DNA from: Echinococcus granulosus
Lineage: Eukaryota; Platyhelminthes; Cestoda; Cyclophyllidea; Taeniidae
Reading direction: 5' to 3'
Length of the DNA stretch: 64,000 bases
Assembly (NCBI RefSeq): GCF_000524195.1
Contig: NW_020170401.1
Span: forward strand, 836,327 to 900,326
The translations under genes were made by a program, and so were the position numbers. The notes under the pieces are model-generated. The model did no database searches. It worked only from the letters and a program-made list of their open reading frames with translations, and was not told the origin of the DNA. This document shows positions 9,501 through 62,032 of this stretch, in pieces (the first letter of the stretch is position 1; the number at the start of each line of letters is the position of its first letter).

Positions 9501-12500
9501 TAAATACGACTGAACTGGTGCGATGCTAGAGAGTTTGTGCCTACGTAGCTGAATATTTTAAAAACTTTTTTCTTAGATGGCCTACTCGCATTCTCGCCAT
9601 CGCTTGCCTGCGTCGACTCATGTGTCTCTGTTACCAGGCTGCCGAGTTAGCTACAGTTGCTCCCCTCTCCACCACAACTACTGCTACAGAAATCGGCCTC
9701 CGTAGTCCCCAGCTCTCTCGTGACTTGCCACTCACTCCGCTGCAGCAACAACAACGGGCACACTTTGACCTCGTTCTGGCACGCAAACTACGTAGCGGTC
9801 TGACCGACGTGCCTTGGCTGGTTCTGCATCTGGCTGATCTTGTGAGGGTGACTTTTATAGCGGCCACCGCTAGCAGCGACCATCTGCGCCGATTTGGCCT
9901 GTTTGCGCTGAAACAGGTCATCCAGTTCTTTGCGCCAGTGGTTGATCCTGATTCGACTGGTGAGTTGTATCCGGTCTCTCGCGCTGTCTGGGCGTTTGGA
10001 TTTAAAGGCGTTTAGGATAGCATCCGTTCTCCTTTAAATTTCCTTGTCGGTTCTTCTAACTGTTACAATTTTATATTGATCATCACAACGGTAAACATAT
10101 GATTAAAAATTGAATGATTAGAAAGAATGGTAGATGATTTGGTATCTTTACTTGACTTGGAGGGTATTGTTTAGCTTAATTTCAATGATGTGAAATGACA
10201 TTGCAGAAGAACTGAAAGACTGGAAGCTTGAACGGCGTGATTACAACTGCTACGGAGGCGGTGATACGGTAGCGTGGAAGCTAGAATCTGGCAACCTAAG
10301 TGCCGGAATCGGAGCTCTATGGTACCCGAATCCCGAATACCGTGTGCTCTGCAGTTCTCTCTCATGAAGACGCCCTGCGTTATTTCCTCGTCACTGTTGT
10401 CACTTTAATGATAGTGTCACCTTACTAGCTTTAGGCTTTCCGCGAGCCTGCAGATCATACTCATCATCTGTCCATCCCTTCACAGCCGTTTTGAATTGTT
10501 CAATTCTATTCCTGCTCCAAAATTGGACCTTATGTTCAATTCGATACTGGAGTCTTTGTAAACAATCAATGCGGATTTAATAGCCTCTCTAACGGCTTTT
10601 CTCGAATTTTACAATCTGCAACAGATGCATTCTTTCGTTCATTCTTGCTTTTGTTCTTACCAACTTCCTTATCTCGCCATGTGACTCGAAATGATTTATC
10701 TCTCACTTAAGGAAACTACCTTTTGGAACAGTTCCAAGCCCAAATCTCCACAGCTCTGAGTTCGGCTTTCGCCACCGCCGCCACCTCTGTCACCGCCATT
10801 ACTACCGCTCCGCTCCCCGACATCACTGCAGCCGCCTGCGAGGTGTGCGCATGTTGGCTGACCTCCGGTGTGCCTCGAGAGGCTGCAGACCTCCGTCGAG
10901 TTCACGACCTCCTCACTGCTTCTCTAGAAATCCTCCGCGCATCACCTTTCTCAACCTCCGCCTCCACTGCGCTCTTCTCCGAGGCCTGTGTGACTCGACT
11001 CAAGCTGGCTGTACTTACCGCCTGGGCCGAGGTCTTCATTGCTGCGGCGAGATTCCGAGAGACGGCTCTTCAAACTCTGCAGCTACTCTCTATTTTGGAG
11101 AGCAGCGGAAGGGAGAGTAGCAGTGGTGGAGATGCTCTAGGTGATGTAGTTCAACGACAGTTCTTTCTTATGTTGGCTGGTGACGGTGGTGCTGGTAGTG
11201 GAAATTGGGCCCAGCCATCCGTCCACGATGCGTCAAAGCTGTTGGAAGTGTTAGAAAAGGAGGTAGATAATGAGGACGAGTTGGATGAGGAGGAAGAGGA
11301 CGAGGTGTTCAATGAGGAGACAGGAGAATGCAGTGGTAGTGTTGATGGTGAGTTACGTTTCTCTATACTGCACACAATCTACTGGAAAGCTTCGTCATAG
11401 AAAGACTCGCTAGCGCGGCTCAGCCGTCCTAAGAGTCTTTTTCACTTCATCATCAGTGATGGTGGATCCCCATGTTTCAACCACTTCAATGCTAATGGAA
11501 GTGAAATAATGTACTCGAGTTCTGCTATATGTAGTGATGCGATCCAGGAGACCCTGGTCCCCTTGCTAATATACTCCCCTTGGAACTAAGATAGGTTCTC
11601 TTTCCACGGGTTGATCATTCCATCGCCCATCGACCGTATACATTAACAAAATGCCCCCATTTTTCCCTCCCACTTGCAGTGACAGTTATAGTCAAGGCCT
11701 TTGTGCAATTTTGTTCTATTTCATAATCTTTATCCTTCCCAGTAAAACGGAAGCGTTTCATTCGAAAATCGCGCCGCACAGTTGCCGAGTCACGTCATTC
11801 CTACCAACTTCTCTCGCGCCTAATTGGTGATGATCTCGCCGAACTGGCCTCGGATTGGCTGGCCGCACTACGCGATTTCGCACTCATTAATCTTCCCGAT
11901 GAGCTAGCCTTCCAGCGTCCTTCCACTGCGGGTGCATTTTACGACACACAGACGGGTATTGAACAAGTGCGGCCATTCTACGCGCGTTCTTGGCTTGCAT
12001 TGCTGGAAGCTGCTACGCTCTGTTTGAATACGGAATCGAAATGCACCTCCAGGTTGTCCTATTCTAGTTTTGAGGTCACCGAGAGGCAAACCGTTGTTTC
12101 CATGACACGAGACTCCTTCTTCCTCATTTTTGGTAAGCTTTCATCACTATCCGGTCAATTGGAAAAGCTATAAGTAGACTTACTCAACGTGGAGGAGGAT
12201 TGAGAAACTGTCAGCTTAGATGGCATGACTTTGATCGGATTCATGGGAGGCTAGAATTGTGTGCGTAATTTACTATAAGATACAAAGTTTTTGAGCATCT
12301 TCATACCATCTGCGAGACAAGAACGACGATCATTTTATGCTGTCTTGGTCTCTATTCCTTTCTTCCCCCTAGGCATAGCGGTGGAAGCTATGTCCGACGT
12401 CATCTCCAAACCCCCCACCTCGGTGGTCGCTAAATGCTTGCGCATCGTGGAGTTGCTTTTTATGAATCCACAGTCACAACCCTACTTCTTTGCTTCTACT

Positions 12501-19132: not shown

Positions 19133-20110
19133 AAACACCATTGCTTTACATTGTTAAGCATTGTGCAAGGTACATTCCCAAATGTTAACTTTTTATCATT
19201 TTCCCCCTTACTAATGCTAAGATTTTACCTGTAATTGCTAAACTCAAGATAAATTAAATTTCCACAGCAAAAAACTACTTGTCGTGAAAGTAATATCATG
19301 ACGCTCCAAATAGATAAGCAAGACTTATTATATTTACTTAAATATGTTCAGTAGCACATCATCTAGTCTTACCTCTAAATCGGGTCCTCTTCCAGAGTAA
19401 GCGATTCAGATTCTATAAAAATCCATTACTTATAGGTCCGAATATGTGCGTCCAAGATAAGTGACAAAAAGTACCGTTCTTTTATCAATATAGTCTTCTA
19501 TTACAGTAATAAATTTGAATTAGGGAATGCCCTTTTTGGAATCAGTAAAATTGGGAAACGGATTAATTCTCGCTACGAAAATTTCCATGCTTCCCTTAAA
19601 ATTAATCTACAGATAGCAAAGCATAAGACCGAGTCAGCATCACTGTTGAGTTTGTTGATATCAGGCAGCTTAAACCATCCTAGGGGCTTAATTTTAAAGA
19701 AAATTGGACAAAAATTGCAAGACAAATATTAGTGGAGGGTCTGGCGGCAATTATCGATTTTCATGAGGGCGACGTGAACTCCACTCTCCTGGTGAAACGA
19801 GTGTTGCTCAGGAGTGATCGCAGCTGACCTATCACGTGTTTGTTGAGCAACAACCAAAAGCCTCAGTCGCATTTTTTTCGTCTCGATATGAGGTGATTCC
19901 ATAAACTTCTCTCTATAAATTCCCACAGTATAAATAATCGAAACATTTTTTCACTAAGTATTCTAGAGCTCTAGTTTTATATTCCTTGCGATGCTGGTGA
20001 CTATTTTTCTCTAACTCACTCTTGCATTCCTTTTAACCGTGAAACATGAACTTATTTTGATTTCAAAGATCAAACATTCTTAAAGAAACTTACTACAACT
20101 TCTTTTGCAG

Positions 20111-21458
20111 CTTAAGCGATGACACTTATAAGTGTGATCAAGAGGACAGCGGCTTTTTTGATTACAGTCAGCAATACAGTCAAAATATCTATGCTACTAC
20201 GCTAGCTCCTCCTGCCCCTCCGCCTCCTCTTCCACCTCTCCCTTCTACTCATCCATCTATATCAGAGTACTTGTCATCTACTTTTCTGCCCACTGATACA
20301 TCCTCCTATCTCCAAGTTCGAAGTGATGAGCCATTCTGTGATAAGTATCCCAACAACAATAGTGACTTTCTCGGTGATACTTCTTTGGAGGAGCAAATCC
20401 TACCTTCCCTACCCGAACGAAGCTACGACTACAGCATGCCGCCCACCTCGACAACCCACAGCCTCAATTCTACTGCCTATCCAATGGAAGCAGTTGAAGA
20501 GGAGCACTTGGTAGAACCCAATAATCAAATTTTCCGCCCCTTTGTGCAAGATAGTCGTCCAGCTATATATGCCTATAGATCTTTAGCTCAGTCAACACCC
20601 CAACAAAATGATGTCGGGCCCGGAGAATGCTATAAAGCTAACAGTCACATCTACATGCAACAGGAGTTTGCAGGCCTGGATACCTCACACAATGGAATGC
20701 AAGGGCAAGATGAACCGCAGACATCAGGTGATATACAAAAGGGGAAAACTGCCCCAAACAGCCAGTTGAATCCAAATGCAGTGGCTATAATGGATGAGTG
20801 GTACAGGGCGCATCTAGACAGACCTTATCCCAATAAAGAGGAGAAACTGCGTATGGCTATCGCTGGGGATATTACAGAAACTCAGGTAAGTCTTTGACAG
20901 GGCTGTCTAGAGAAAAGCGACTTTTTTCTTGTCCAAGTCTTTGACAGTAATGGCTTCAATGGCCAAGGGTAAAAATCATTTTATTTCCTAAAAAAGTAGT
21001 CTTTAAATACTGTAAAAGAATATTTAATTTGTTTTAACAAGTTTATGCATTTTGATTGGGTTTAGTGCCCTACAAAGTCGATTCGCGCACACCAGACGAG
21101 AGAGGACAGGGAGTTGTAAATCGATTTTCTATAAAGCTGACTAAAAAATCAATATCGGGGGTGTTAGGACAGGTGTTAACCTACGTCTACTCGATTTTTT
21201 TAGCGTATTTTTATGTTTCAAAGTTTTTTTTTATTTTTTTTCACTTTCATCTCGCTCTCCGTGCTTCAGGTAGGTTCGTGGTTTGCCAACCGACGCAATC
21301 GTAGTAATAATACGCGGCCGAAGCAAAATATGAAGCGGTTAAAGGCGGCCATCTGGGCGCTGTGCTGTGAGTATCAGAAGATATGCAATGGGCTTGTTAA
21401 TGCCACGGAAATGCAGGCAAGGATAATCAGTCTAATCGAGCACCACACCAAATTCTAA
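20111..21458 (+). CDS. TALE-class homeobox protein (Iroquois/Mohawk-like), two 3' exons
   Basis: DNA-binding transcription factor. Exons are 20111-20885 (phase-2 start after TTTTGCAG, phase-0 end before GTAAGT) and 21270-21458, ending in TAA. The N-terminal part is Pro/Ser/Tyr-rich and low in complexity, with a proline run (APPAPPPPLPPLP). The homeodomain straddles the intron: DEWYRAHLDRPYPNKEEK with the three-residue TALE insertion before PYP, then TETQ, then VGSWFANRRNR with the invariant Trp48, Phe49, Asn51 and Arg53. Residue 50 is Ala, as in the Iroquois and Mohawk groups rather than PBC (Gly) or MEIS/TGIF (Ile). EKxxxAI...T.TQV.SWFAN also fits Iroquois/Mohawk, but the third helix reads NRRNR rather than NARRR. 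Only about 47 residues follow the homeodomain. The first exon and start codon were not found. Confidence 0.85.
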
Positions 21459-30800: not shown

Positions 30801-33365
30801 TCACCAAACGTTTCCTCAGAAGAATTAAATGACTTTTCATTTCGATAATATCATATTGTAACTACTACATTTTGTTAAGTAGTATGGTATAGGAACAAAA
30901 GGCCAAAATTAGAAACTTCTGGAGCCTGACTTGATTGGTTGATTTAATCGTAAGATGAGATACCATTTGACTAAGCAAAATCTAACCATCCCCTTCTTTT
31001 AACCAAGGGCATTCAATCCTCCATGCGGATGCACTCGACAGCAGTTCAGCTGGGCAGTGGGTGGGATCACAGTGGCAGTTGTGGTGGTGATCGCGGTGGC
31101 GGTCAGTTTGGGTGTGATCTTCAACCGAGTCGAACCCCTCCAATTCCCCGAAGCTGAGCCCTGGTGGACCCACGGCCTTGTTTACCAAATCCACGTGCCC
31201 ACCTTTGCCAACGATGCTGGCGGAGCGCTGGGTCGTTTCAAGGATGTCACCTCTCGAATGGTCTACCTAGCTGACAAGGTTGGGTCGGCTTGATAGTTCG
31301 ATTTGTGACTAGTCGCATCGAGTACACGCATCGACGTCTATATCATATACATCGAATTGTATTTTTACTGTCATCAATGAAAAGCCAACCACTCTTCTGT
31401 TGGCTTGTGTTACAGATCTACGCGACAGCAGCAATATTGACAGGAGTCCTGGATGCGGATAAAAATGGGGTGCGGAACTGGAAGACAATCAATCAGGACA
31501 TTAACAGTGAGGGTGACTCGGTGGACGCATTATTGGCAGAAATGGACACTAGGGCAAGAGGGAATGAGATTGAGTTGATGCTGGGGATGCCGCTGTATGC
31601 CACAAGTGATAGACATCCCTGGTTCGCGCAGAGTATCCAAATGAACCCGCAGAGATTTGCCAACTTTTACTTGTGGAGAAAAGAGCAGGTAAATGATGGA
31701 AATAAAGTGAACCTTGGATTCCGTATTTGTGCTTATCAAACCCTTCAGACCAGATCCATCCATCCTGCATCCATCCATCCATTTATTCATCCTTCTATCC
31801 ATCCATGCTCTCAGGCATTAATTCATTACATTCTAATTTCTTCATCTGGATGAACATCGAACGGGTGTTATCGTTTGCATCCCACTACAATTTTCAGCCC
31901 GTTAACTCAATTGAAGCACGCTACTATGCCTTCAACAATGTGAGAAAGGAGTACTACCGTCATGTCCATGGAAATCCATCATCACCGCTACTCAACCTCT
32001 CCGATCCCGAAGTAAAAATTATATTTCTTCCACCCTTAACAAACCCATGTATTTAGGGGTTCAAAACTACTGATTTAATATTAGTAGTTAGGTTAACAAC
32101 CTTTAGAATAAAAAAAAGTTTTCGTTTAATATTCCTTTAATTCTTGCACATAAAGGTTCAAACAGAAATGAAGTCTGTGATTGCCTTCTGGAAAGAGGAG
32201 CTCGGGATTAGTGGAGTTTTCATTACCAACTCCACCAACATTTTAAATGAAATGGCAGCTCCACTCACCTCCATTTTGACCTCAGGTCTTGACAGTGAGT
32301 GAAACGATTTTAAAAAGGATGCTAAACTGCGGGAAAAAACTTAATTTTAATTGTAAACTTTAGAAAACACAGACGCCTTTACCTGGTTTGCCGACAATCC
32401 TACCGCCGACAAGCTGCTCACAGGCAAACCTCCCTGCTACTATGAACTGATTAGTAACGAACGCATTACCACCCGCACGGAGGATATAAATGCCCAGCTC
32501 TATTCTAGTGGGTATTATTAAGTAAAATCGACGCACCTTTTAAAGTTGAATTGCGTTTGCCTTCAAAGCATGAAGAAAAATTATTCCTAGGTGAAAAATA
32601 CGGCTTTCGAGATTAAAGTTTTGCTTAACATCTGAGTTAATTTACTCTACGATCTTTAAGAAAATAAACGGCCTCAATGTTTCACTTTCAGTTCTCCCCG
32701 AAATCAAGCAGAGATCATGTTCACCAGTTTGGCGTCTCACACAACGTTCTGCTGATTTCACTGATTACTTTTCACTGCAAAAATTCGCCGCGTTTCTGCC
32801 AGGTCTCAGTGTGATGAGGGCAGGAGAGGAAGTTCAACTCGTGAGTTATGCGTGGAAATAAAAATACATTCCATTTACATCCATTTTTGGCAATAACAAC
32901 TGCAAATAATATCAGATGACCGGATCAACGGAACTCATCCAATGGGATTCGACTAATCCAGCGGACTTCAAGACCTACTGGCCAATAAACGTACTGCCCG
33001 ATGAGACAGCGAAACAGCGATTGGGGAGTTGGGAGCGATATGGCGAGAAGACAGTGGGAGGGGCAGGAACGATATTTAACACCGGTTGGGGAAACAGTGA
33101 CGTTCGAGTTATGTCGATACCACGCACGGAGAACCTCTTTGTGGTGCAACGGGTCTATGTGCCCAACGAAGCACATTTTGCCACCTTTTTTGTTAGCTTT
33201 CAAGCATTGAATGCATTCACCAATCTGGCAGAGGTTGTGGCCACCTCAGATGGCAGTTCGATTGTCAACCTTGTCTACGAGGGGAGAGGTCTATTCGTGG
33301 GAAAACAGCTGCAGCTCAAGTGGGTGTATCTGGTCAATAATGATGTTTTTATTACATTATCTTGA
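27841..33365 (+). CDS. SLC3A2: SLC3 family heavy chain of heteromeric amino-acid transporter (4F2hc/rBAT-like)
   Basis: Type II membrane glycoprotein that escorts a light-chain amino-acid transporter to the surface. Exons: 27841-28172, 31050-31278, 31416-31688, 31898-32011, 32156-32294, 32364-32507, 32692-32840, 32916-33365; all phases agree and give about 609 residues. The start is the first ATG (MQPGYRNYN). A cytoplasmic tail of about 110 residues ends KKK. One membrane segment follows (WAVGG...VVVVIAVAVSLGVIF), then the (alpha/beta)8 ectodomain opening PWWTHGLVYQIHVPTF, equivalent to the family's WW...G..Y.I motif; a later FLPGLSVMRAGEE matches LPG.P...GEE. Glycosidase catalytic residues are not apparent, as is normal for SLC3. 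There is no cysteine between the membrane segment and WW, where 4F2hc bonds its light chain. The last exon may read through a GTGGGT donor at about 33320, so the extreme C-terminus is uncertain. Confidence 0.85.
28173..31049. other. First SLC3 intron, no supported gene
   Basis: 2.9 kb AT-rich intron separating the exon for the cytoplasmic tail from the membrane-segment exon. It begins AA|GTATGT and ends TTCAG|C. No exon-like or repeat structure was recognised. Confidence 0.6.
31748..31812 (+). repeat. Short CATC tetranucleotide repeat in an SLC3 intron
   Basis: Imperfect (CATC)n tract between the third and fourth SLC3 exons. It has the same motif as the large array near 60 kb. Confidence 0.7.
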
Positions 33366-41572: not shown

Positions 41573-41684
41573 CCAATCACTATCTTACCGGCAGCAAGGC
41601 TATAAACCAATCACACAAGAGGCTGGTATTCTGATGACTATAAAAACCCCCTTCTACGCATTCCTGGGTCCATTTGCAGCAGTC
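41573..41684 (+). promoter_or_regulatory. Core promoter of the EGF-like gene: two CCAAT boxes and a TATA box
   Basis: CCAAT boxes lie at 41573-41577 and 41607-41611, followed by TATAAAAA at 41639-41646. The start codon is at 41685, 39 bases after the TATA box, so transcription would start about 25-30 bases downstream of the TATA box with a very short 5' leader. An upstream in-frame ATG at 41634 precedes the TATA box and would therefore not be transcribed from this promoter, which supports the choice of 41685. The spacing is that of a classical regulated animal promoter. Confidence 0.6.
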
Positions 41685-44600
41685 ATGAGCCACCAGACAA
41701 ATCACCTCCTTCGTCTCGCCTTCTTCCTGGCGGTGAGTTTAGCCGGAGCCTCTACGATCCGGCCGCGTACCGCTTCAGAGCTTGAGACTACTGATCCCGA
41801 GACATTGAACGCACACAAAGACTTTCTTAGTCTTCTCCGTGGTCCTCTCATACCAGCAGCTTTCATGAACCCTCATGGGGCCAGAAACAATCCTCGTTGC
41901 ACAAAGAGTTCCCCTTATGTGGATATGGATGACAAAATATTCGTGGAAGAGCTTCCAAGTCCACGGATCGAGAGCAACATTCGAGAGATCATAAACACTT
42001 TTGTAGAGGCGCTGAAAGCACGACAAATCCTGGTTCGTCTCCCTTCTCTTCCAAATTCGCAAAGAACAAAAGCGGAGGGAATCCGAGTCCTGCAGTGAGG
42101 CGGAGTGCATCTACAAGATCCCCTGCTACCTCTCTCAAAGCTTTCGCTCAGTGCCCATGTACAGTGAGATGCTAAAGCGCGCTCGAGTGAGAGAGGGCTT
42201 CGATCTTCTAAGCCGGCGACGGCGCAGCCTCGATGGACTCGAAATGGATGCAGAGTTTAAATCTCTGATTTCGAGTGGCAAGGCGCCTGTCACAAACTGT
42301 ACGGGTATTTTTGCCAATTACTGTTACAATTCCATCTCCTGCATTTACGTCAGCGTTCTGGAGAGCGCTGCTTGCTCGTAAGTTGGCCACTTTTAATGTG
42401 CATAATCTCTCTCAAGGTTGAAACAAATCCATGAGTGTTTACTTACTAGAAAAGATGTGAGATCACTTCCCGACCACGCAGAGGTTTAAAATACCACACT
42501 AAATCCCTAAAAAATATTATCTGTGCCGACTCTGCACACATGAGGGTGGTTTATCATCAGGCAAGAATAAATTATTGCATTACATCATGCCTTAGACTAG
42601 TTGAGTTATAGGTAATGGATGTTCTTGAGATTAGGCTTGTTGCGATTGTCAGGAGTTGATCGCAGGTGCTCGATTATCTCCCAGAATCCAATAGCAGACG
42701 AGTTCAGGTGAAGCAGAAGGCAGCAGAGTCGCCTACCGGGGCATAGAAGCGATTTAAACTGCACTTTCGTTGGCAAAAGTAGGAGTAAACCGCATTTATT
42801 GCTGAGAGGGAGCGATAAAACCGAGCCACATTCTCTATAAAATGATTAGAATCATAAAGTTACAGAAACTTCTAACAAACTGAAGGAATTAAGAGCGTTC
42901 TGAGAGTCTAAATTAAGAATTTACGTAATCGGCGTTGTTTAAAGTTTCGCAACGCAGATGTTATTGCCAGACCTCTGTTCAGCATGACCTGAAATGGTAA
43001 ACAGAAACTCCTGCTTTAAATGGATTATGGGACCAAGGCTCGGTACTAAAAAGATCAGTTTATTTTCAGAGCCTCAAATACTATGAAAACGAAAGATTGC
43101 CCTTTAAATTCTTCCGCAGGACTCAAAAAGCATTCAGAAGGACTGACAGAAGAACAAAATAAAGATGCTGGTTTACGAGGTAAAGTTGACTGTAAATCGT
43201 TGGTTTAATGCAAGAGAGAGAGTATTTGAGAAATGTGTTTTAGGATTCACTCCTATGGCGTGGACAGTAGATATTTGTAGTGTTGATCAAATGATGGGGG
43301 CCTGGAATCAACAGATATCAACATCAGAGACTTCTAGAACACTGCAGAAAGAGGTGATCGTAAACTATTAGGTAGTCCGATTGCGTGAATGATGAGTGAC
43401 AGTGAAGAATTTGTGTTTAGACCTTAGTTGCATCAACAAGTATCACAGTAGTGCCACAACATCCGTGACAGAGGGGACAGTGTGTATCCTAGTTCGCTCT
43501 GAATAGCCATGTCACGGCTCGTTTAAACTTACCGGATATGGTACTTCAAGGGGTCGTATTAAAAAGCTAGCAAATAAAAAACAAAACCTTAAAGGGTAGC
43601 GAAGCACCAGAACTCCACTGGAAGATTTCGTGCCGTCTTGAAGGCAAAGCTACTTCACTTGCTGGGATGAAATCACAAAGACGTCATTCCTAACATTTAT
43701 CAGAACCGAAGCCATAAAATGCGGTATGCAACAGTGGTTGTGGGCATAGTTGTGTGTTAGTCATCAAATAACAGCGATACGGCATAACCTGAGGTACATC
43801 CATTATACCCCTTGTCGTCCCGTTAATTGTTCACTAACCACGTGGAGGCTTTTGATTAATTAAGGAGAATAAACAATAAAAATCTATTTTTCCCATTCGT
43901 TTAAAGACAGAATCTTGCATTAACTATAAGAAAACATTTTGCTTAGATGATTTTTATCCCAAGGAAGTTCACTGGTTAGGTATGAAACTATTGTATGTTT
44001 GTTACTGATTTTTGGACTCCCTCCCCCTCTCTCTCCCTAGGTTACAAGTGGTCGATGACTTTGTTTGGGATAATTTAAAGAAAGGCATTTTAATTTCTTT
44101 TTTAAAGTCGTGGAACATAAAATGCCTGATTTTAGGGGCCAAATAAATTCCTTTAGGGTTGTCATACTACTTAAAAGTTGTATAGACGATGAATCAGTGA
44201 AAGGGGAGACAACATATCTTTACGCAGTGGTGGTGGAGGTAATAGTTCATCTTCTTTTTGTCAGAAAGTGAAGTAAACCTGATTAGTCAGGCCTCCCTTT
44301 CCTTGGATCGAAATTCCCAAAAGGTGAATCGTCTTAGAGTAATTGGAACATTGCGGTAAGCCATAACAATAGGTAATCAGATTGGACTGAATGGGCATCA
44401 CATGAATGCATGATTTCACACCTTGGTTTTTGCAGCTTTTTGAACCAAAAGGTCAAGGCTAATTGGAAGTGGTCTATTCGCGCATCCACATGATTGACCT
44501 TTTCACATGTACCCTGCCAAACAGCCTACCCAACTAGATTCAGACAATAAAATGCCCAACAATTATTCTCCCAAATGGAAATAGAACCAGTAGAAAAGGA

Positions 44601-47182
44601 AGAGGAAAAAAGAGTAGACACGATTACTCAATCAAGACCAAATAAACGTCATAAGCATCAGTACTTGAGGAAGTTGGTTTTTTAATTGTCCTCTTTCAAG
44701 ATTTGAAGGCATGCGACTCAAGGTTCTGTCATTTGTATTTTGTCTGCCTCAGTTTAAGAAATTGTCTACAGTACTAGCCTCCTATTTAATTACTTCCGGT
44801 CACAGAACTGGGAGTTCTGGGTCATACTCCATTCTATTTCCAGCTGTCTCCAATAGCACAATCAAGAGGGCATGGCAAAAGGCTTTGGCAACGTGGGCCC
44901 ATTACCTGTTCTTCAATAATTGGTGGTACTGCTGCTGCTCTGAGGAAGATAAAGTGACCACAGAGCAATACTAAAAGGTCTCGATAAATGCCAACAATGC
45001 GAAACATTTCAGACATATGTGGAACGCTTCTGAGTGGGTGCCAGAAGGTTTCTAAATTTGGAAGTTATGGTAATAAGGTGAACTTTGAATGGAATTCGGA
45101 GACCTTTATGCCAACAAAATGCTTTGTGTCGATATCGTGATTGCTCTCACGCAGCCTCTTTAGGCACTTGGACACTCTTAAGAGGGGAAGCTGAAGTGGA
45201 TGGGATTTTTGGTTAGCATCTTATCCCAAATTACGCAAATCTGACACAATTTCGACAGAAGCAAAGGACATTTCTAAAATACCTCCTACCCCTTGGAAGC
45301 TGCAAAGTTTGACATGCTGAAATGACGTTTGTCACTTTTTATTGTAAGGAGGATCAGGTTGAATCCAAATACGCTTAAAGGAGTAGCTATAGAAAGTCAA
45401 AGGGTGTCTTGAATAAAAAACAATCGCTGCGGGCTTTAAGCACACAGGTCAACCATCTGGATGGGCTACTTATTATTGTCATTTTTCGTAGATTGCATTT
45501 ATAGTGATGAAAATATGGATCATAGTGATCGCCCTTCAGCCAAGAAACACTCTTCTTTTACTTTAGGCTCAACGAATCTGTTAATGTTGCATTTTACCAC
45601 AATCACTTTCCATAAGCTGATGACAAACACGGAGAGTATAGTGCAGTTTACAGAATGGAACGAAAAAGTGGTGTTACACAGAAGTAAGGCAAACTCCAGT
45701 ATTTAAAAATATCCATTCTGATTTTCGAGAATATAACTTGATAAATTTGACCAATCAGAAACAAACCTTTAAATGTCAAAAAGTAAAACATTGGCAAGAT
45801 GAAATAAAAGAACACTTCATCATAAATAAATTTATTAAAAGGTGGGATTAAAATTTTGTTTATTAAATCTTCATGCATTTGCAAGTTGAAAAGTTGAGAA
45901 ACCGCTCCAAGGGTCAACCGTGCGATTTGTTGTGACTTCAGGTGTATGCCGGGTTACACAGGTCTGCGTTGTGACCTCTATGACCTCTCGATAACCTTGG
46001 CCACCCTGTCTCAGTTTCGCACCACCACAGTTGACATCGAGGCTCTGCGACCTGAGGATTCTGCAACTATGTACAGTGTTCTCGATGCTACTGCGTAAGT
46101 CCTTAGCCTACTTGGGAATTACTCCCTATTGCCTTATACCCTACAAAAGTGCCGTTCGCTATGTTTTTCCTGAGGCTTCAGCACAATGAGGAGGTGATAA
46201 ACGGAACAAGGAGCTGAAGCACTGGAAAGGAAACATATACCTCTAACACAGACTTTAGTGTCTCTGAGTTAATTTAAGGGGTTTGGTGAACTTTACGGGT
46301 GGTAGAACTAAGTGGTGATAATGTGGGAAACCCTTCGAATGAAGTTGCAGCAAATTTCTATTTAAGAAATAACTTCAACTCAGCCAATAGAGCCAACTAT
46401 TTAGAAAGGAGAGGAGACTTTTACCATTCTACTATGGTTAAATCCGTTTTCCTTGTATGGGAAAAGATACCAAAAAGAATCACAGATAAGGTCGAGTACG
46501 AACTAGGTAGCGGAGATCAGTCTTAAAAGCGCGGGGTTTGTGCGAGCTTGATAAAGTAAGTTCCAAGGATGAAAAAGTCTGAAAAACCTGAATATTAGTA
46601 AAGTAGATCTTAAGGAGACCTAAAAATTTTCATGGTTATATTTAAGGATTTTAAAAACCTAAATATTGACATTTCCCGGCCATAGTAAAAAATTGAATAA
46701 AAATGATAACTTAAATTATTGAGGTCTTCAGAAAGGTAGAATAGCCAAATTTGCCACCTTTAGTTGTTCAGTACTTGGATAAAACACCCAGTTGCTAAGC
46801 ATTATTAACAATAACTATCTACTCCCAGTCCCAATGGACGCAAACTAGCTGTTCCATTCCTTCCAAAATTGAATTGCTCTGTCAATTCTGAGCTGCAGGT
46901 CTCCTAGTGCTCTGCAGTGAATCGGGATAGAAGCTTTGCACCACCTTTGGGATCCGAGAGAAAAGTCCGATCTCAGTCCAACAGGTTCAATGTTCATCCC
47001 ATGATATGAGATCTCAAAATAAGTGGAAGGCAGTAGGGTTGACGACAATGGGTGCCGAGCTGTACCGATGGACTGAGGCCTGTCTATGCTTTATGCTGCA
47101 TGCTCATAAACAGCTATTTCTTCTTCTCTGTCCTTTCAGACGATATACCTACTCGGCCTTCGAAATAGAGGACGAAGTTTGA
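41685..47182 (+). CDS. Secreted EGF-family growth factor (ErbB ligand-like), about 282 residues
   Basis: Exons: 41685-42032, 42073-42377, 45942-46094, 47140-47182. The protein opens with a signal peptide (LLRLAFFLAVSLAGAS), followed by a pro-region with four cysteines, a tetrabasic furin-type site (SRRRR, about residues 164-167) and one EGF module (about 192-228). Its cysteine spacing C-x7-C-x5-C-x10-C-x-C-x8-C equals that of human EGF. GYTGLRC.LYDL keeps the positions of EGF Tyr37, Arg41 and Leu47, which contact the receptor. The intron after 42377 splits the module between cysteines 4 and 5, as in vertebrate ErbB ligands. The tail of 54 residues has no membrane segment, so the product appears secreted rather than shed from a membrane precursor. 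The join between the first two exons is uncertain: a 40-base intron is proposed, but a one-base insertion error would also explain the frame change. By family knowledge the product should activate EGF receptors; that is inference. Confidence 0.75.
42033..42072 (+). other. Putative 40-base mini-intron in the EGF-like gene
   Basis: The signal-peptide frame runs into a stop at about 42098, whereas the frame carrying the furin site and EGF module has no start upstream. Removing GTTCGT...AAAAG (40 bases) joins the two frames in phase. The same GTTCGT donor is used in HEATR5 at 13023. The acceptor lacks a strong pyrimidine tract, so a one-base insertion in the sequence is an equally valid reading. 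Confidence 0.4.
42378..45941. other. Intron within the EGF module
   Basis: 3.6 kb intron, TC|GTAAGT to TTCAG|G, phase 2. It interrupts the serine codon between cysteines 4 and 5. No other gene is supported inside it. Confidence 0.7.
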
Positions 47183-47417: not shown

Positions 47418-47423
47418 AATAAA
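47418..47423 (+). terminator. Poly(A) signal of the EGF-like gene (AATAAA)
   Basis: AATAAA about 235 bases after the TGA stop at 47180-47182. Confidence 0.5.
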
Positions 47424-56900: not shown

Positions 56901-59900
56901 TATGGATGCTACTGTGGCATCTCTAGAACCAGCTTTAATCTAGGAGACGTTATTTAAAGGGACAAACAATAGTGGTAGCAAACACATGTGTGTGTGCATA
57001 AGGCAGCCTGTGGTGATGATCCAAGTTCCTCTGATTTACTGGAGACTTCAGGGATATTTTGTAATATAGCATGAAGAAGCATGATACCTGAATGATGTAA
57101 ACGTTTCACAGACAGTCGACAAAACATCTCTACGTCTATTAGTTAAGATTCCGGCTGCGGTAGTTCTATTTGCAGTCCATAGTCTCGGTATTCCTTCAGT
57201 GTTGTGAACAATCAGCCCAGTGGAACGCCTCATCCTGGTTGCAAGATTGACGCCTTACATATAATGAATTTGCAGAAGAAGCAAAATTACCATTAATTCA
57301 GGTAAACACATGCATTAGCAAGCTGGCTTATTAATGTCGAAAAGTTGCCGTTCCTTAATTCACCAAATCTTAACGTCAAAGTGAATTAAATCGCCTGTGC
57401 AAGTCGTAGAAGTAGGTAAACGAGTGTCGTAGACAATTGCACCGAAACATAAACCCCTTTTCACTCCCCTGAAATTTTCTTCCCTTTTCCTACGCTCTTA
57501 ATTCTTGTTTCAACTTAATTGTACCTCTACTCGTTCAAAGCATCTCTCAGTCAAATTTATCTGAACAAATGAAGCTATTTCTTCCTTTGGAAAACTCTAA
57601 AGCCTTTAATCTTTTCTTAATAACACCGGAGATACTGCTCTTACTGTTTACCCACTAAGTACATTTCCTAGCTTTTGAAGATGCAATTCGCCCAAAATCA
57701 GCTTTTAAGAGGAACGATGTCAATACGAAGTACAAATAGTATTCTGCAATGTATGACAGTGATCAATTTAATCACTTAATTATTTTACTGCTCCGACTTT
57801 TCATTTTTCCTACATCGAAACAGGGTTATTAATGGAAGCGTTAATTTCGTAACCTTTATTGTGACGGGCTGTTTAAGCGTTTATTTCACTCATGTAGTCA
57901 TGGTAACCTCCATCAAATCAGGCATTCTAAACAAGAGGGTCATTGTTCGTTTTTGTAAAATTTATCACTACAAAGCATCACTTTTTGAGCTGTCAGGTAA
58001 ATGAACTGGTTTTTATGCTCCTCATTTTGGTTGATGTTTTGTGAACTACAAATGCTTACTGACGGCAAACTACGCGATTCACTTGCCATTTAAAAACAAT
58101 AGTTATTAAGCACTTTATGAAGTGTAAATTGTTTCATTCTGCTTTGCTGAAATTGTGTTTGCAATTATGTAGACAACGGAAGTCACTCAGTCGCAGAATG
58201 CAACTTCAAATGCGAATTGTGCTGCCTCACTGAAGGCAATTTTTCGCAGTTCTGAACCTTTAACCGAACCTCTCTCTGAGTTGCGGACGAGGAGCATATC
58301 GGTATTAAAATATTATTCATAGTTACCTAACAGCGTCCTAATAACAATGTTAAAGGTAGAGTCAATTACAAATGCTTTTCTTTTCTCTCAAGTTATTTAA
58401 TATCTAAACATTTCTTGTTTTTTGGGACCATGAGGCTAGCGACACCACCATAATATTTTCTCAAATGTAAAAATTGAGGCAATTCTCTACCTCATTTTTT
58501 TGCTTACTGCAGCACCGCGAAAGTACTGTTTTTTTTCTGACTTGATTAGGAGGAGTCTGAAGTGGGTTAATGCTCGGTCGTGCCAATTAAGGAGCAGTCT
58601 TTAGTAGAACCTGAGACACAAATCAAATAATGTAGCTATTTTAATTTCAAAAAAGGCAAAAGCTACAAAGACGGGGTGTCAGAAATAGGATGTGCCTTAC
58701 AAAAATCCGCAAAAAGCATCCACCTGACCGGGTATAGTTGGGGCTACTGTAGAAGCACTAAAAATTTACGAAATTTTCTTTTACAAACCAATGGGATCTC
58801 CCATAGGAACCACTGCTCTATAGCAAAGACGTTGGCCTGATGTTTTAGTCTTCCCTATTTAACTCATGGAATAATCGAGTGTCAAATGTTTATTCTACGA
58901 TGAGTACTTCCATAAAAAAGACAATTAATTTATTTGCACGATAAGTGCACATTCAGGGGAATATGGGGCGGAGGATACATTTAAGTACTTCTTATCTACG
59001 CGCTTCTCCCCTCCCAATTTCCCTACTTGTAAAGATTTCACCCTAACCTAGCAAAGATCGTTCATCTTTGCATTGCCTCGAAATCACGGAGGACTGGAGG
59101 AAGAGGAGGAGGAGGCGACATTTGGTTAGAGGCAAGACAGACACCTCGTGGTACGCGGGTGTCTCAGCTCGGATGCATTAGCCCCTTGGCTGCAATGCAA
59201 TGCGTGTGGCCCACGAAACTATTTAATTATTTATGTGACCTTTTAAGCCGAGGTGGTCAACTACATTCCATCTCGGCAAAGGAAATTGCAGTGGCTAAAT
59301 AGTATACTTTTTGGTCAAGAAAGACTGAAAAATGAAGAAAAAATAGGCTGTTTTTTCCAAGGATTACGTAGTTTGTGGAGATGATTTGTTGATGAGGGAT
59401 TTTTAATTAAAGTTCAAATCCAAAAACCCAAAATTCCCATTTTATTAAACGGTTTCGTGCATGTGAGAGGTATTGTTGACACAAAAGCATAAACAAAACT
59501 TAATGCAAAGTTTCAAAGGGAAAGATTGTGGTGATAAAATATTTATACCTCATTGTTAAAAAAGTCCCAATTGAAATGCCACTTTTTTCTCGGTCACGTT
59601 TGGTAAAATTTATGCGAAAAACAAATTTTGTTTAATGTGTATCTTAGTGAGGCATTTAAGTATAACTTCGTAGAAATACAACCATAAGGATCAGCGAGGT
59701 CCTCACATTTAATGACCAGTCATTAAAAAGGTGCCAATGGTAAGTGATTTTACTCGCCTACCTATCTATCAGTCTATGCAATCACCCCTCCATTCCATCT
59801 ATTTGTACATACATCCTGTACCCTTCCGCACACTCATCTTGTATCCAGCCTGTTTCCTTTTACCCACTCTTCCATCTATCCCGCATCCATTCCTGCATCC

Positions 59901-62032
59901 TGTGTTCAGACATATAAACAGTCTTCCATTCATCTATTCATTCATCCATCCATCAATCCATCCATCTATCCGTCTATCCATTCCTTATTCGTAAATCCTT
60001 TTCAACCATCATTCCAATCATCTATCAATCCAAACACCTATTCATCCCGCATCCATCCTTCTACCTCGTATCCTTTTTACCAGTCCATCCATTTAATATC
60101 TTTCCTTTCAACCATTCATCCATCCACCTATCATCCCTCTATCTAGCCATCCATCCACCAATTCCGCACCCATTCTTCCGTTTCATATCTATCCATTCGT
60201 TCATTTATTTATTCTTCCAACCATTTATCCCATATCCTGCCATCCATCATCCGTCTATTCATTCATCCATTTATCCACCCATCCGTCCATCCATTCATCT
60301 TGTATCCATCCATCCACCCGTCCATCCATTCCGTATTCTTCCATCCATCCACCCATCTTGTGTCTTTTCATTCATCCATCCATTTACCCATCAGTCCATC
60401 TACCCATTCATCCGTCCATCCATTCATCCATTTTTCATCCTTCTCTCTATCCATCTACCTACCTGTCTATCTACCACTTATCTGTTTCCATCTCTACCTA
60501 CTTATCAGTCTGTCTATCTACCTACTCAAATACCTGTCTTCATATCTGCCATCTTACCGGCTAATTCATCTATTCACCTATCCACCAGCCTACCAATCTA
60601 ACAATTAGTCATCCATCTGTTTATTCATTTATCTGGCTGAAAGAAGCGCTTTTCATTCGCTTTGTTCATCAAGCCTACCCATTCGTTAGAAAGCTTTCAT
60701 GAAATATGCACGACTTCCCCAAGTTTAAGACAGCGTCAATCTGCAAGGCGGAAACAATATGCGTCCCTTTGGTGGTAAGGCCTCCCTCTTTAATGGAAAG
60801 GTCAGGCGCCCATTTGCGCTGTCCATTCTTTAGTCCACCTTTAAAGACTGGGAGGGTGGAGGCACCCAACTGCTGAAATTAGGAGCAAAATAAGTGGTAA
60901 AACAACCAGACACTACTTTATGAATGCCAAAATATATGGTATCCGGTTTACCAACAAATTTTTTTTCCAAGACTACCTCACACTTGTTGAACGGATTTAC
61001 CCATTGAACAGGGCGTTCCATCATCAGCAGATGGGTAGTTGAATTGGGTTCTACGACAATCTCATTGAGAGTCTGATTGGAGAGCACTTCTACAGAACTC
61101 ATCAGATAGGGAAGGCAGGAAGGCTTTCCACTAGGTCGAGCCTCCACCCCTCATGGTCGATCACTGAAGCAGGTAGCTAATATCAAGCCTAAATGACTCT
61201 CAGTCCATGAGGATCAAAGACTGCGTTCCGTCCACCATTAAATGGGACAGGAGGCCACAGTAATGACGTGTTAATTGAGTCAAATCATCCCACAATTAAA
61301 CGAACTTTGAGTTATCACATGAAACTCTCACCCTAGATGCAATGAGTTTTTAGGCAAATTTTTGACTCCAAATCAATTTTCATGGCTTTTAAAATGCTAG
61401 ATAAGCCAGTGAGTTCTTTACCCTCAAACAAGAAGGTAACACCGACCGATTTAACCACTGATAATGTAAGTATCATTAACTCCTCACTTTCGAGCTGCCA
61501 CCGAAACCTCCGTAAAACAAGAAAAAACTATCCACGGAAGTTGCGGAAATAATCTGGAAAAAAAATTTTATCGAAATTTTATTAACCTCGCTTCACAATC
61601 AGACGGAGTTTTAGACAATAGCACCGGGAAAGTGGAGTGAGAGGGACGCAGAAGTATTAACAGTAGGTAGAAAAGAGGGACGAGTTAGCTACAACTCAAT
61701 TAAATGCAAACATAAAGTCCAGAACGCCCACACAATCCTGCGTAGCAATGCATCCTTGTGACGAAGAATTTATTTTTAGGTAGTAACAAACTTTTATTTT
61801 TATCACTAGTAATCTCGAACTAGAATTGCGGCAGAGAGAAGCCGAGGTGGCACGACGAGTGGTCAGCTCGGCGCAAGACATCTATGGAAGCGTCGGTGGG
61901 TGCAGTCTCTGTGATTCGCCTGCCACAGTCGAAAGGATGGAAGAAAGGGCTGCCAAATTTCGGCAATGCGATGATTGTGAACGTCGTGTCTGTCCCAACT
62001 GCTCCTTCACGATCAGTCAAAGTGATTCAAAA
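53989..62032 (+). CDS. Piccolo/Bassoon/RIM-like active-zone protein, N-terminal two exons (continues past window)
   Basis: Active-zone scaffolds that organise synaptic-vesicle release and bind Rab3 or other release factors. Exon 1 is 53989-54515 and exon 2 is 61810-62032; phases agree (phase 2, codon TC|T). The protein begins MGNETS, a consensus N-myristoylation site and the same MGNE start as vertebrate Piccolo and Bassoon. A Ser-rich linker of about 140 residues follows. Next comes a helical segment [20 protein letters not shown]... typical of Rab-binding domains of the RIM/rabphilin type, and then the first half of a FYVE-type zinc finger with Cys at about residues 207, 210, 229, 232, 237 and 240 (CSLC, CDDC, VCPNC). 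The last two metal ligands should be on the next exon, which is not in the window. Whether it is closest to Piccolo, to Fife-type proteins or to RIM cannot be decided from this part. Confidence 0.75.
54516..61809. other. 7.3 kb intron of the Piccolo/RIM-like gene
   Basis: Bounded by C|GTAGGT and CACTAG|T. Mostly AT-rich, with the CATC-type tandem repeat near its 3' end. A minus-strand frame of 105 codons at 60830-61147 has no recognisable domain. No nested gene is supported. Confidence 0.6.
59750..60625 (+). repeat. Large imperfect (CATC)n / (CATT)n tandem array
   Basis: Nearly 900 bases of degenerate tetranucleotide units (CATC, CATT, TATC, CCAT) on the plus strand, with scattered substitutions that break it into short perfect blocks. 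It produces meaningless His/Ser/Pro/Ile-rich open frames. An old expanded microsatellite. Confidence 0.9.

What the first reader, a model, noticed from the sequence alone, without database searches (positions are those of the whole stretch)
41685..47182. Endogenous flatworm EGF with vertebrate-type cysteine spacing and receptor-contact residues
Seen: signal peptide, tetrabasic cleavage site, a single EGF module C-x7-C-x5-C-x10-C-x-C-x8-C identical in spacing to human EGF, Tyr/Arg/Leu at the EGF 37/41/47 positions, and an intron placed between cysteines 4 and 5. Known: in vertebrate ErbB ligands the third EGF loop is encoded by a separate exon, and these residues contact the receptor. Inference: this is a worm-made EGFR ligand. 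It matters because work on cestode EGF receptors has stressed host EGF as the stimulus. The absence of a membrane anchor is also unusual for this family.
Basis: partly seen in the sequence, partly recalled or inferred. Interest (0 to 1): 0.88.

Follow-up and report, generated by a model that had tools for sequence, protein, structure and literature searches.

The report
Tapeworm's own secreted EGF-type signal
A hydatid tapeworm gene encodes a small secreted protein built like the animal growth factor EGF; relatives of it occur in tapeworms and flukes, and the gene is probably the counterpart of a recently cloned fox-tapeworm protein whose receptor is still unknown.

Summary
The EGF module is real. 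The gene at 41685-47182 belongs to a conserved family: 21 homologous proteins, 10 from named cestodes, 3 from named trematodes, 8 unnamed. The 11 entries that include the whole module keep its cysteine spacing and Tyr/Arg/Leu at EGF positions 37/41/47. The intron between cysteines 4 and 5 is supported.

The window instead shows a frame offset relative to them, either an assembly error or a real lesion; I could not tell which. The gene probably has three exons.

Novelty is limited. E. multilocularis EmEGF (EmuJ_000753300; signal peptide, single EGF domain, cloned cDNA) is in print (PMC12963305) and is probably the orthologue, though I could not match identifiers. Its receptor assay failed technically, so its receptor is open. 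Anchorless EGF ligands are known in planarians (PMC4914847).

Not found in two literature searches: trematode homologues, and conserved blocks flanking the EGF module (a cysteine-containing pro-region before a furin-like site, and a ~50-residue tail where other ligands have a membrane anchor). Receptor binding is inferred, not shown.

The parts
41639..41646 (+). TATA-like box beginning 46 bases before the start codon
   Evidence: sequence; function inferred
41685..42377 (+). Exon 1 (one continuous exon, not two): signal peptide, N-terminal region, pro-block, RRRR site, EGF module up to cysteine 4. Carries a frame offset relative to orthologues between about 41949 and 42072
   Evidence: P0005, probably read from unspliced DNA, spans it as one open frame
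41685..41753 (+). Probable signal peptide (about 23 residues)
   Evidence: hydropathy of the identical N-terminus of P0001/P0002; no dedicated predictor was available
41949..42138 (+). Conserved N-terminal pro-block (ELPSP...CIYKIPCYLSQ in orthologues); two of its cysteines are kept in the trematode-type proteins
42033..42072 (+).
42214..42225 (+). Tetrabasic RRRR, furin-like cleavage site before the EGF module
   Evidence: RRRR in P0001-P0017 (17 of 17), R-x-R-R in P0018-P0021 (4 of 4):
42298..42377 (+). EGF module, first part (cysteines 1-4)
42378..45941 (+). Phase-2 intron between cysteines 4 and 5 (GTAAGT...TTCAG)
   Evidence: 9 of 21 homologous entries end directly after cysteine 4, as a read into this intron would
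45942..46094 (+). Exon 2: third EGF loop (C5 at 45943, C6 at 45970), Tyr/Arg/Leu contact residues, most of the C-terminal tail
46095..47139 (+). Phase-2 intron (GTAAGT...TTTCAG)
47140..47182 (+). Exon 3: end of the conserved tail and TGA stop; no membrane anchor
47418..47423 (+). AATAAA polyadenylation signal
   Evidence: function inferred

Best explanation
This is the Echinococcus granulosus(-like) orthologue of an E. multilocularis secreted EGF-type ligand (P0001; probably EmEGF, EmuJ_000753300). Shown by sequence: a precursor with a signal-type N-terminus, a conserved pro-block, a tetrabasic site, one EGF module with vertebrate-ligand spacing and contact residues, a conserved ~50-residue tail and no membrane anchor. 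Inferred: a furin-type protease cuts after RRRR in the secretory pathway, the pro-block is released, and the EGF module plus tail leaves the cell as a soluble ligand. It then binds one or more of the worm's own EGF receptors by inserting Tyr37, Arg41 and Leu47 between receptor domains I and III, driving receptor dimerisation and ERK signalling. Because it needs no rhomboid or ADAM release step, it would act over a longer range than the anchored neuregulin-type ligand. In the window itself the frame is offset upstream of the EGF module, so whether this particular strain makes the protein is undecided.
For: 16 homologues at E <= 1 with the single protein and 21 with a profile. The EGF spacing and Tyr/Arg/Leu are kept in the 11 homologues that include the whole module; only 1 of 40 other third-loop patterns read from 39 loci of this genome shows Arg and Leu together. 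Solved-structure matches rank ErbB ligands first: best E 3.2e-5, and the 12 best of 50 rows are EGF, EGF/TGF-alpha chimera, epigen or epiregulin chains with the profile. C4-C5 intron. Furin-like site in 21 of 21. In the 11 homologues with a tail, no 19-residue window after residue 40 exceeds 1.55 in hydropathy, and that one lies in the EGF module. Receptor L-domain loci are present in the genome: 6 matches on 4 contigs. Published: EmEGF has a signal peptide and a single EGF domain; human EGF activates EmER1 and interacts with parasite receptors.
Against: No binding or activation data exist for this protein that I could find; published EmEGF constructs auto-activated the yeast assay. The link P0001 = EmuJ_000753300 rests on architecture and name, not on a matched identifier. 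Against that link: the 2026 paper says the earlier survey required a transmembrane domain and speaks of replacing the transmembrane domains of its ligand constructs, whereas this protein has none; for it, the same paper ascribes a transmembrane domain to EmNRG only, and the survey itself allows zero. The module scores below Pfam's EGF cut-off (17 against 21.5 bits). One gene with many EGF repeats in the same genome also has Tyr/Arg/Leu. The window's frame offset could mean that the gene is broken here. No structure prediction was possible.
Confidence: 0.75

Rival explanations
1. A secreted EGF-module protein that does not bind EGF receptors (for example a matrix, tegument or eggshell-associated protein) and resembles ligands by chance or ancestry.
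For: The EGF module is below Pfam's cut-off. Conserved non-EGF blocks on both sides suggest functions beyond a bare ligand. Tyr/Arg/Leu also occur in 1 of 40 other third-loop patterns.
Against: A single module, exact ErbB-ligand spacing, all three contact residues kept in the 11 homologues that include the whole module, four of them of trematode type, the C4-C5 intron, and ErbB ligands outranking Notch.
Confidence: 0.13
2. An EGFR antagonist or modulator (Argos-like logic) rather than an agonist.
For: A secreted, anchorless, furin-type precursor fits an inhibitor as well as an agonist.
Against: Argos has an enlarged, atypical EGF loop (recalled); here the module aligns with human EGF without a gap.
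Confidence: 0.05
3. The window's gene is a pseudogene in this lineage: the frame offset truncates the protein before the EGF module. (Compatible with the family being a ligand elsewhere; not exclusive of the best explanation.)
For: The offset lies upstream of the EGF module. The E. granulosus model EGR_03844 (P0002), listed on a contig of 1,092,214 bases against 1,080,049 for the window's contig, reads the same offset frame.
Against: The sequence beyond the offset is intact, with its splice sites, and the exon 2 and 3 residues match orthologues. P0001's 90% cluster holds 3 members, so other near-identical intact Echinococcus entries probably exist (inference, members not seen). P0002 may be the same assembly in another version. 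A search with the truncated frame found no copy of it: 1 hit among 35 candidates, the unnamed relative P0010 at 55% identity; this also leaves the offset unconfirmed elsewhere.
Confidence: 0.25
4. The four-exon reading of the first reader is right and this lineage gained a 40-base intron.
For: GT and AG lie at the ends and the frame is restored.
Against: The 'intron' is coding and conserved in 15 homologues (P0001, P0003-P0016); removing it deletes a strongly conserved part of the pro-block.
Confidence: 0.03

Closest known systems
E. multilocularis EmEGF (EmuJ_000753300), Koike et al. 2026, PMC12963305
   Same: Signal peptide, single EGF domain, classed as EGF-type; same genus. P0001, named 'EGF region', is the E. 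multilocularis homologue and fits this architecture.
   Different: The identifier of P0001 was not matched to EmuJ_000753300; the E. granulosus copy shows a frame offset. The parts of the paper I saw do not mention a pro-block, furin-like site, conserved tail or trematode homologues.
E. multilocularis EmNRG (EmuJ_000090400)
   Same: Endogenous EGF-family ligand; interacts with EmER1 and EmER2 in yeast (PMC12963305).
   Different: EmNRG has an immunoglobulin domain and a transmembrane domain; neither is found here.
[quoted passage not shown]
   Same: Secreted EGF-type flatworm ligands without a transmembrane domain.
Human EGF, TGF-alpha, epiregulin, epigen
   Same: Cysteine spacing of human EGF; Tyr37/Arg41/Leu47; ErbB ligands top the solved-structure searches; intron between C4 and C5 (vertebrate side recalled).
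   Different: No membrane anchor; 54-63 residues follow cysteine 6 in the 8 homologues measured and are partly conserved; a distinct pro-block.

Membership tests
EGF-type EGFR ligand | A single EGF module with six cysteines in ErbB-ligand spacing | tested here: met
   Exact spacing and one module in 11 of 21 entries. Of the other 10, nine end directly after cysteine 4 and P0006 continues with unrelated sequence, so they lack the third loop as modelled
EGF-type EGFR ligand | Receptor-contact residues Tyr37, Arg41, Leu47 | tested here: met
   All 11 entries with the whole module; 1 of 40 other third-loop patterns of this genome has Arg and Leu. That these residues contact the receptor is recalled
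EGF-type EGFR ligand | Secretory signal peptide | tested here: met
   Hydropathy only; P0008, P0014, P0017 and P0020 show no hydrophobic N-terminus and may be incomplete; P0005 carries it after an upstream extension
EGF-type EGFR ligand | Transmembrane precursor | tested here: not met
   No later hydrophobic segment in the 11 tail-bearing homologues. Not a disqualifying feature in PMC4914847, which accepts zero to two transmembrane regions, though its introduction calls all known EGF proteins transmembrane precursors
EGF-type EGFR ligand | Intron between cysteines 4 and 5 | tested here: met
   That this marks ErbB ligands in vertebrates is recalled; searches found no paper on it
EGF-type EGFR ligand | Binds and activates an EGF receptor | not testable with these tools
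   Published assay for EmEGF failed through auto-activation
Neuregulin-type ligand | Immunoglobulin domain plus EGF domain | tested here: not met
Pfam PF00008 EGF | Score above curated cut-off | tested here: not met
   17 bits against 21.5; 10.9-16.9 in the six homologues scanned
Orthologue of EmEGF (EmuJ_000753300) | Sequence identity with that gene model | tested here: inconclusive
   P0001 is E. multilocularis, 96% identical over aligned residues, with fitting architecture; the gene-model number is not shown by any tool, and searches for neighbouring numbers gave no link. The paper's wording on transmembrane domains is ambiguous
Argos-type antagonist | Enlarged atypical EGF loop and inhibition of EGFR | not tested
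   No Argos sequence compared; the module aligns with human EGF without a gap

The most novel reading that the evidence does not exclude
Tapeworms and flukes share a distinct class of anchorless EGFR ligands, defined by three conserved blocks: a cysteine-containing pro-block ended by a furin-like site, an EGF module with vertebrate-type contacts, and a ~50-residue tail in place of the membrane anchor. The tail would be part of the active ligand, setting range or receptor choice, and the soluble ligand would reach host as well as worm EGF receptors.
Probability: 0.2. Interest if true: 0.75.

Novelty: new member of a known kind. Interest (0 to 1): 0.42.

Why it matters
EGF signalling controls stem-cell behaviour in larval tapeworms and is a drug target, and which ligands drive it is unsettled; the 2026 paper names EmEGF as an open candidate. 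The E. granulosus gene is named a hypothetical protein and its model P0002 skips conserved sequence, so studies relying on that model would miss part of the pro-block. Trematode homologues widen the question, because the 2016 survey listed no EGF-type ligand for Schistosoma mansoni.

Tried and rejected
Rejected: absence of an anchor as unusual (planarian egf-6 and egf-7; zero transmembrane regions allowed). No paralogue found in this genome: P0001 and P0018 each gave 3 matches, all at this locus; these searches run exon by exon and could miss distant ones.

Led nowhere: linking P0001 to EmuJ_000753300 through neighbouring gene numbers (only showed EmuJ_000752700 to be an alkaline phosphatase). 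Papers on the C4-C5 intron (0 papers each). Looking for independent copies of the offset frame (1 hit among 35 candidates, the unnamed relative P0010, not the same frame). The Pfam EGF search of the genome gave 125 matches, none on this contig, because the intron splits the module. Rfam: no match in the window at the gathering score.

Control limits: the 40 third-loop patterns are regular-expression matches in six frames that already require an aromatic residue at position 37, one of them contains a stop, and they come from 39 loci, 30 of which are the best of 125 EGF matches, so they favour strong EGF repeats. The 11 'whole-module' homologues were picked by a pattern that fixes the spacing, so the conserved spacing is partly by selection; the other 10 lack the third loop rather than showing another spacing. 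The profile search scored only the 8000 candidates sharing most words and filters by length, so absence of Schistosoma or planarians from the 21 hits is weak evidence. Two odds or words were changed on rechecking: 'very probably EmEGF' became 'probably', and confidence went from 0.78 to 0.75, because of the paper's wording on transmembrane domains.
Full report
What is there. The window lies in a genome of 103.6 Mb in 272 contigs, contig C252, 836327-900326. The plus-strand gene starts with ATG at 41685 and stops at 47182, with a TATA-like box at 41639 and AATAAA at 47418. A protein search returned 16 homologues at E <= 1 among 1625 candidates, led by E. multilocularis P0001. A profile search returned 21 among 8000 scored candidates: 10 from named cestodes, 3 from named trematodes (Fasciola gigantica, Paragonimus westermani, Clonorchis sinensis) and 8 unnamed.

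The gene model. The 42378-45941 intron splits a codon between cysteines 4 and 5, and the 46095-47139 intron splits a codon near the end; both have GTAAGT donors and give the protein seen in orthologues. Nine of 21 homologous entries end directly after cysteine 4, as expected if a reading ran into the same intron. The first intron, 42033-42072, does not hold. Read in the downstream frame, 42016-42078 gives 21 residues, 12-21 of them identical in the 15 proteins P0001 and P0003-P0016 and all 21 in P0001; P0017 has 8 of 21, the four trematode-type proteins 5-6, and P0002 lacks the stretch. P0005, probably read from unspliced DNA, carries the region as one open frame. The window is therefore offset in frame relative to its relatives upstream of the EGF module. 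Intact copies exist in relatives. The P0002 model shows the same offset and is listed on a contig of a different length (1,092,214 bases against 1,080,049), but I could not show that it is an independent assembly. Assembly error and real lesion both stay open.

The EGF module. The spacing C-x7-C-x5-C-x10-C-x-C-x8-C and Tyr/Arg/Leu at positions 37/41/47 are kept in the 11 homologues that include the whole module, four of them of trematode type. Of the other 10 entries, nine stop after cysteine 4 and P0006 continues with unrelated sequence. As a control, 1 of 40 distinct third-loop patterns read from 39 loci of this genome shows Arg and Leu together, so the signature alone is suggestive and its conservation is what counts. 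Against solved structures the single protein matches an EGF/TGF-alpha chimera and EGF first (E 3.2e-5) and Notch repeats later (1.6e-4); with a six-sequence profile the 12 best of 50 rows are EGF, EGF/TGF-alpha chimera, epigen or epiregulin chains. Pfam's EGF model scores 17 bits, below its cut-off of 21.5.

The rest of the protein. Conservation falls in three blocks. From P0001 to Fasciola P0018: pro-block 17 of 59 aligned residues, EGF up to cysteine 4 19 of 27, third loop through Leu47 9 of 16, tail 19 of 48. The stretch between the furin-like site and the EGF module is variable and 220-260 residues longer in the four trematode-type proteins than in P0001. A furin-like site follows the pro-block: RRRR in P0001-P0017 (17 of 17) and R-x-R-R in P0018-P0021 (4 of 4). 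Between 54 and 63 residues follow cysteine 6 in the eight whole-module homologues measured of 11, and no tail contains a hydrophobic anchor by 19-residue hydropathy. Four homologues (P0008, P0014, P0017, P0020) show no hydrophobic N-terminus and may be incomplete.

How it most likely works. Inference from the anatomy: entry into the secretory pathway, cleavage after the basic site, release of a soluble EGF module with its tail, and binding to the worm's own EGF receptors. Receptor L-domain matches lie on four contigs of this genome, compatible with the three EGF and two insulin-type receptors reported for E. multilocularis. No step is shown experimentally for this protein.

What is known. Of PMC12963305 I saw the abstract, the Discussion and passages. 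It describes two endogenous ligands. EmNRG has an immunoglobulin and a transmembrane domain and interacts with EmER1 and EmER2. EmEGF (EmuJ_000753300) has a signal peptide and a single EGF domain and is expressed mainly in protoscoleces and adults; its constructs auto-activated the yeast assay, so its receptor is unknown, and the Discussion names it as a possible further EmER1 ligand. The paper's wording on whether EmEGF has a transmembrane domain is ambiguous: it ascribes one to EmNRG only, yet says the earlier survey required one and that transmembrane domains were replaced in its constructs. Of PMC4914847 I saw the abstract and part of the introduction, the sections on ligand distribution and searching, the figure legends and tables, and passages. 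It lists one EGF-type and one neuregulin-type ligand for E. multilocularis and none of EGF-type for S. mansoni, accepts ligands with no transmembrane region, and describes planarian egf-6 and egf-7 as secreted without one. PMC10850878 was seen in passages only. P0001, named 'EGF region', fits EmEGF, but no tool shows its gene-model number. Two paper searches aimed at trematode ligands (10 of 16 papers listed and seen as a listing only, 0 papers) showed none that describes trematode homologues of this family; the library holds open-licence papers only.

Verdict. The useful remainder is the corrected gene model, the frame offset that needs checking, and a family in tapeworms and flukes with conserved blocks around the EGF module.

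Noticed in passing
window 10711-11397 +: Exon of a Laa1/Sip1/HEATR5-type HEAT-repeat protein (Pfam PF20210, E 1.9e-25).
   Followed up: no
window 20061-20894 +: Exon ending in the first part of a homeobox KN (TALE-type) domain (Pfam PF05920, E 5.7e-6).
   Followed up: no
window 31275-31850 +: Alpha-amylase-like exon, below Pfam's cut-off (19.3 against 22 bits); possibly an amino-acid-transporter heavy chain (recalled, untested).
   Followed up: no
window 59748-60605 +: Low-complexity stretch with long open frames in all three forward frames, rich in Ile-His-Pro-Ser repeats.
   Followed up: no
L009, L018, L031 (G000 contig C258, about 131-133 kb): A region with many EGF repeats holds the only other third-loop pattern with Tyr/Arg/Leu in the 39 loci read.
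   Followed up: no
P0018, P0019, P0020, P0021: Trematode-type homologues carry 220-260 extra variable residues between the furin-like site and the EGF module.
   Followed up: partly
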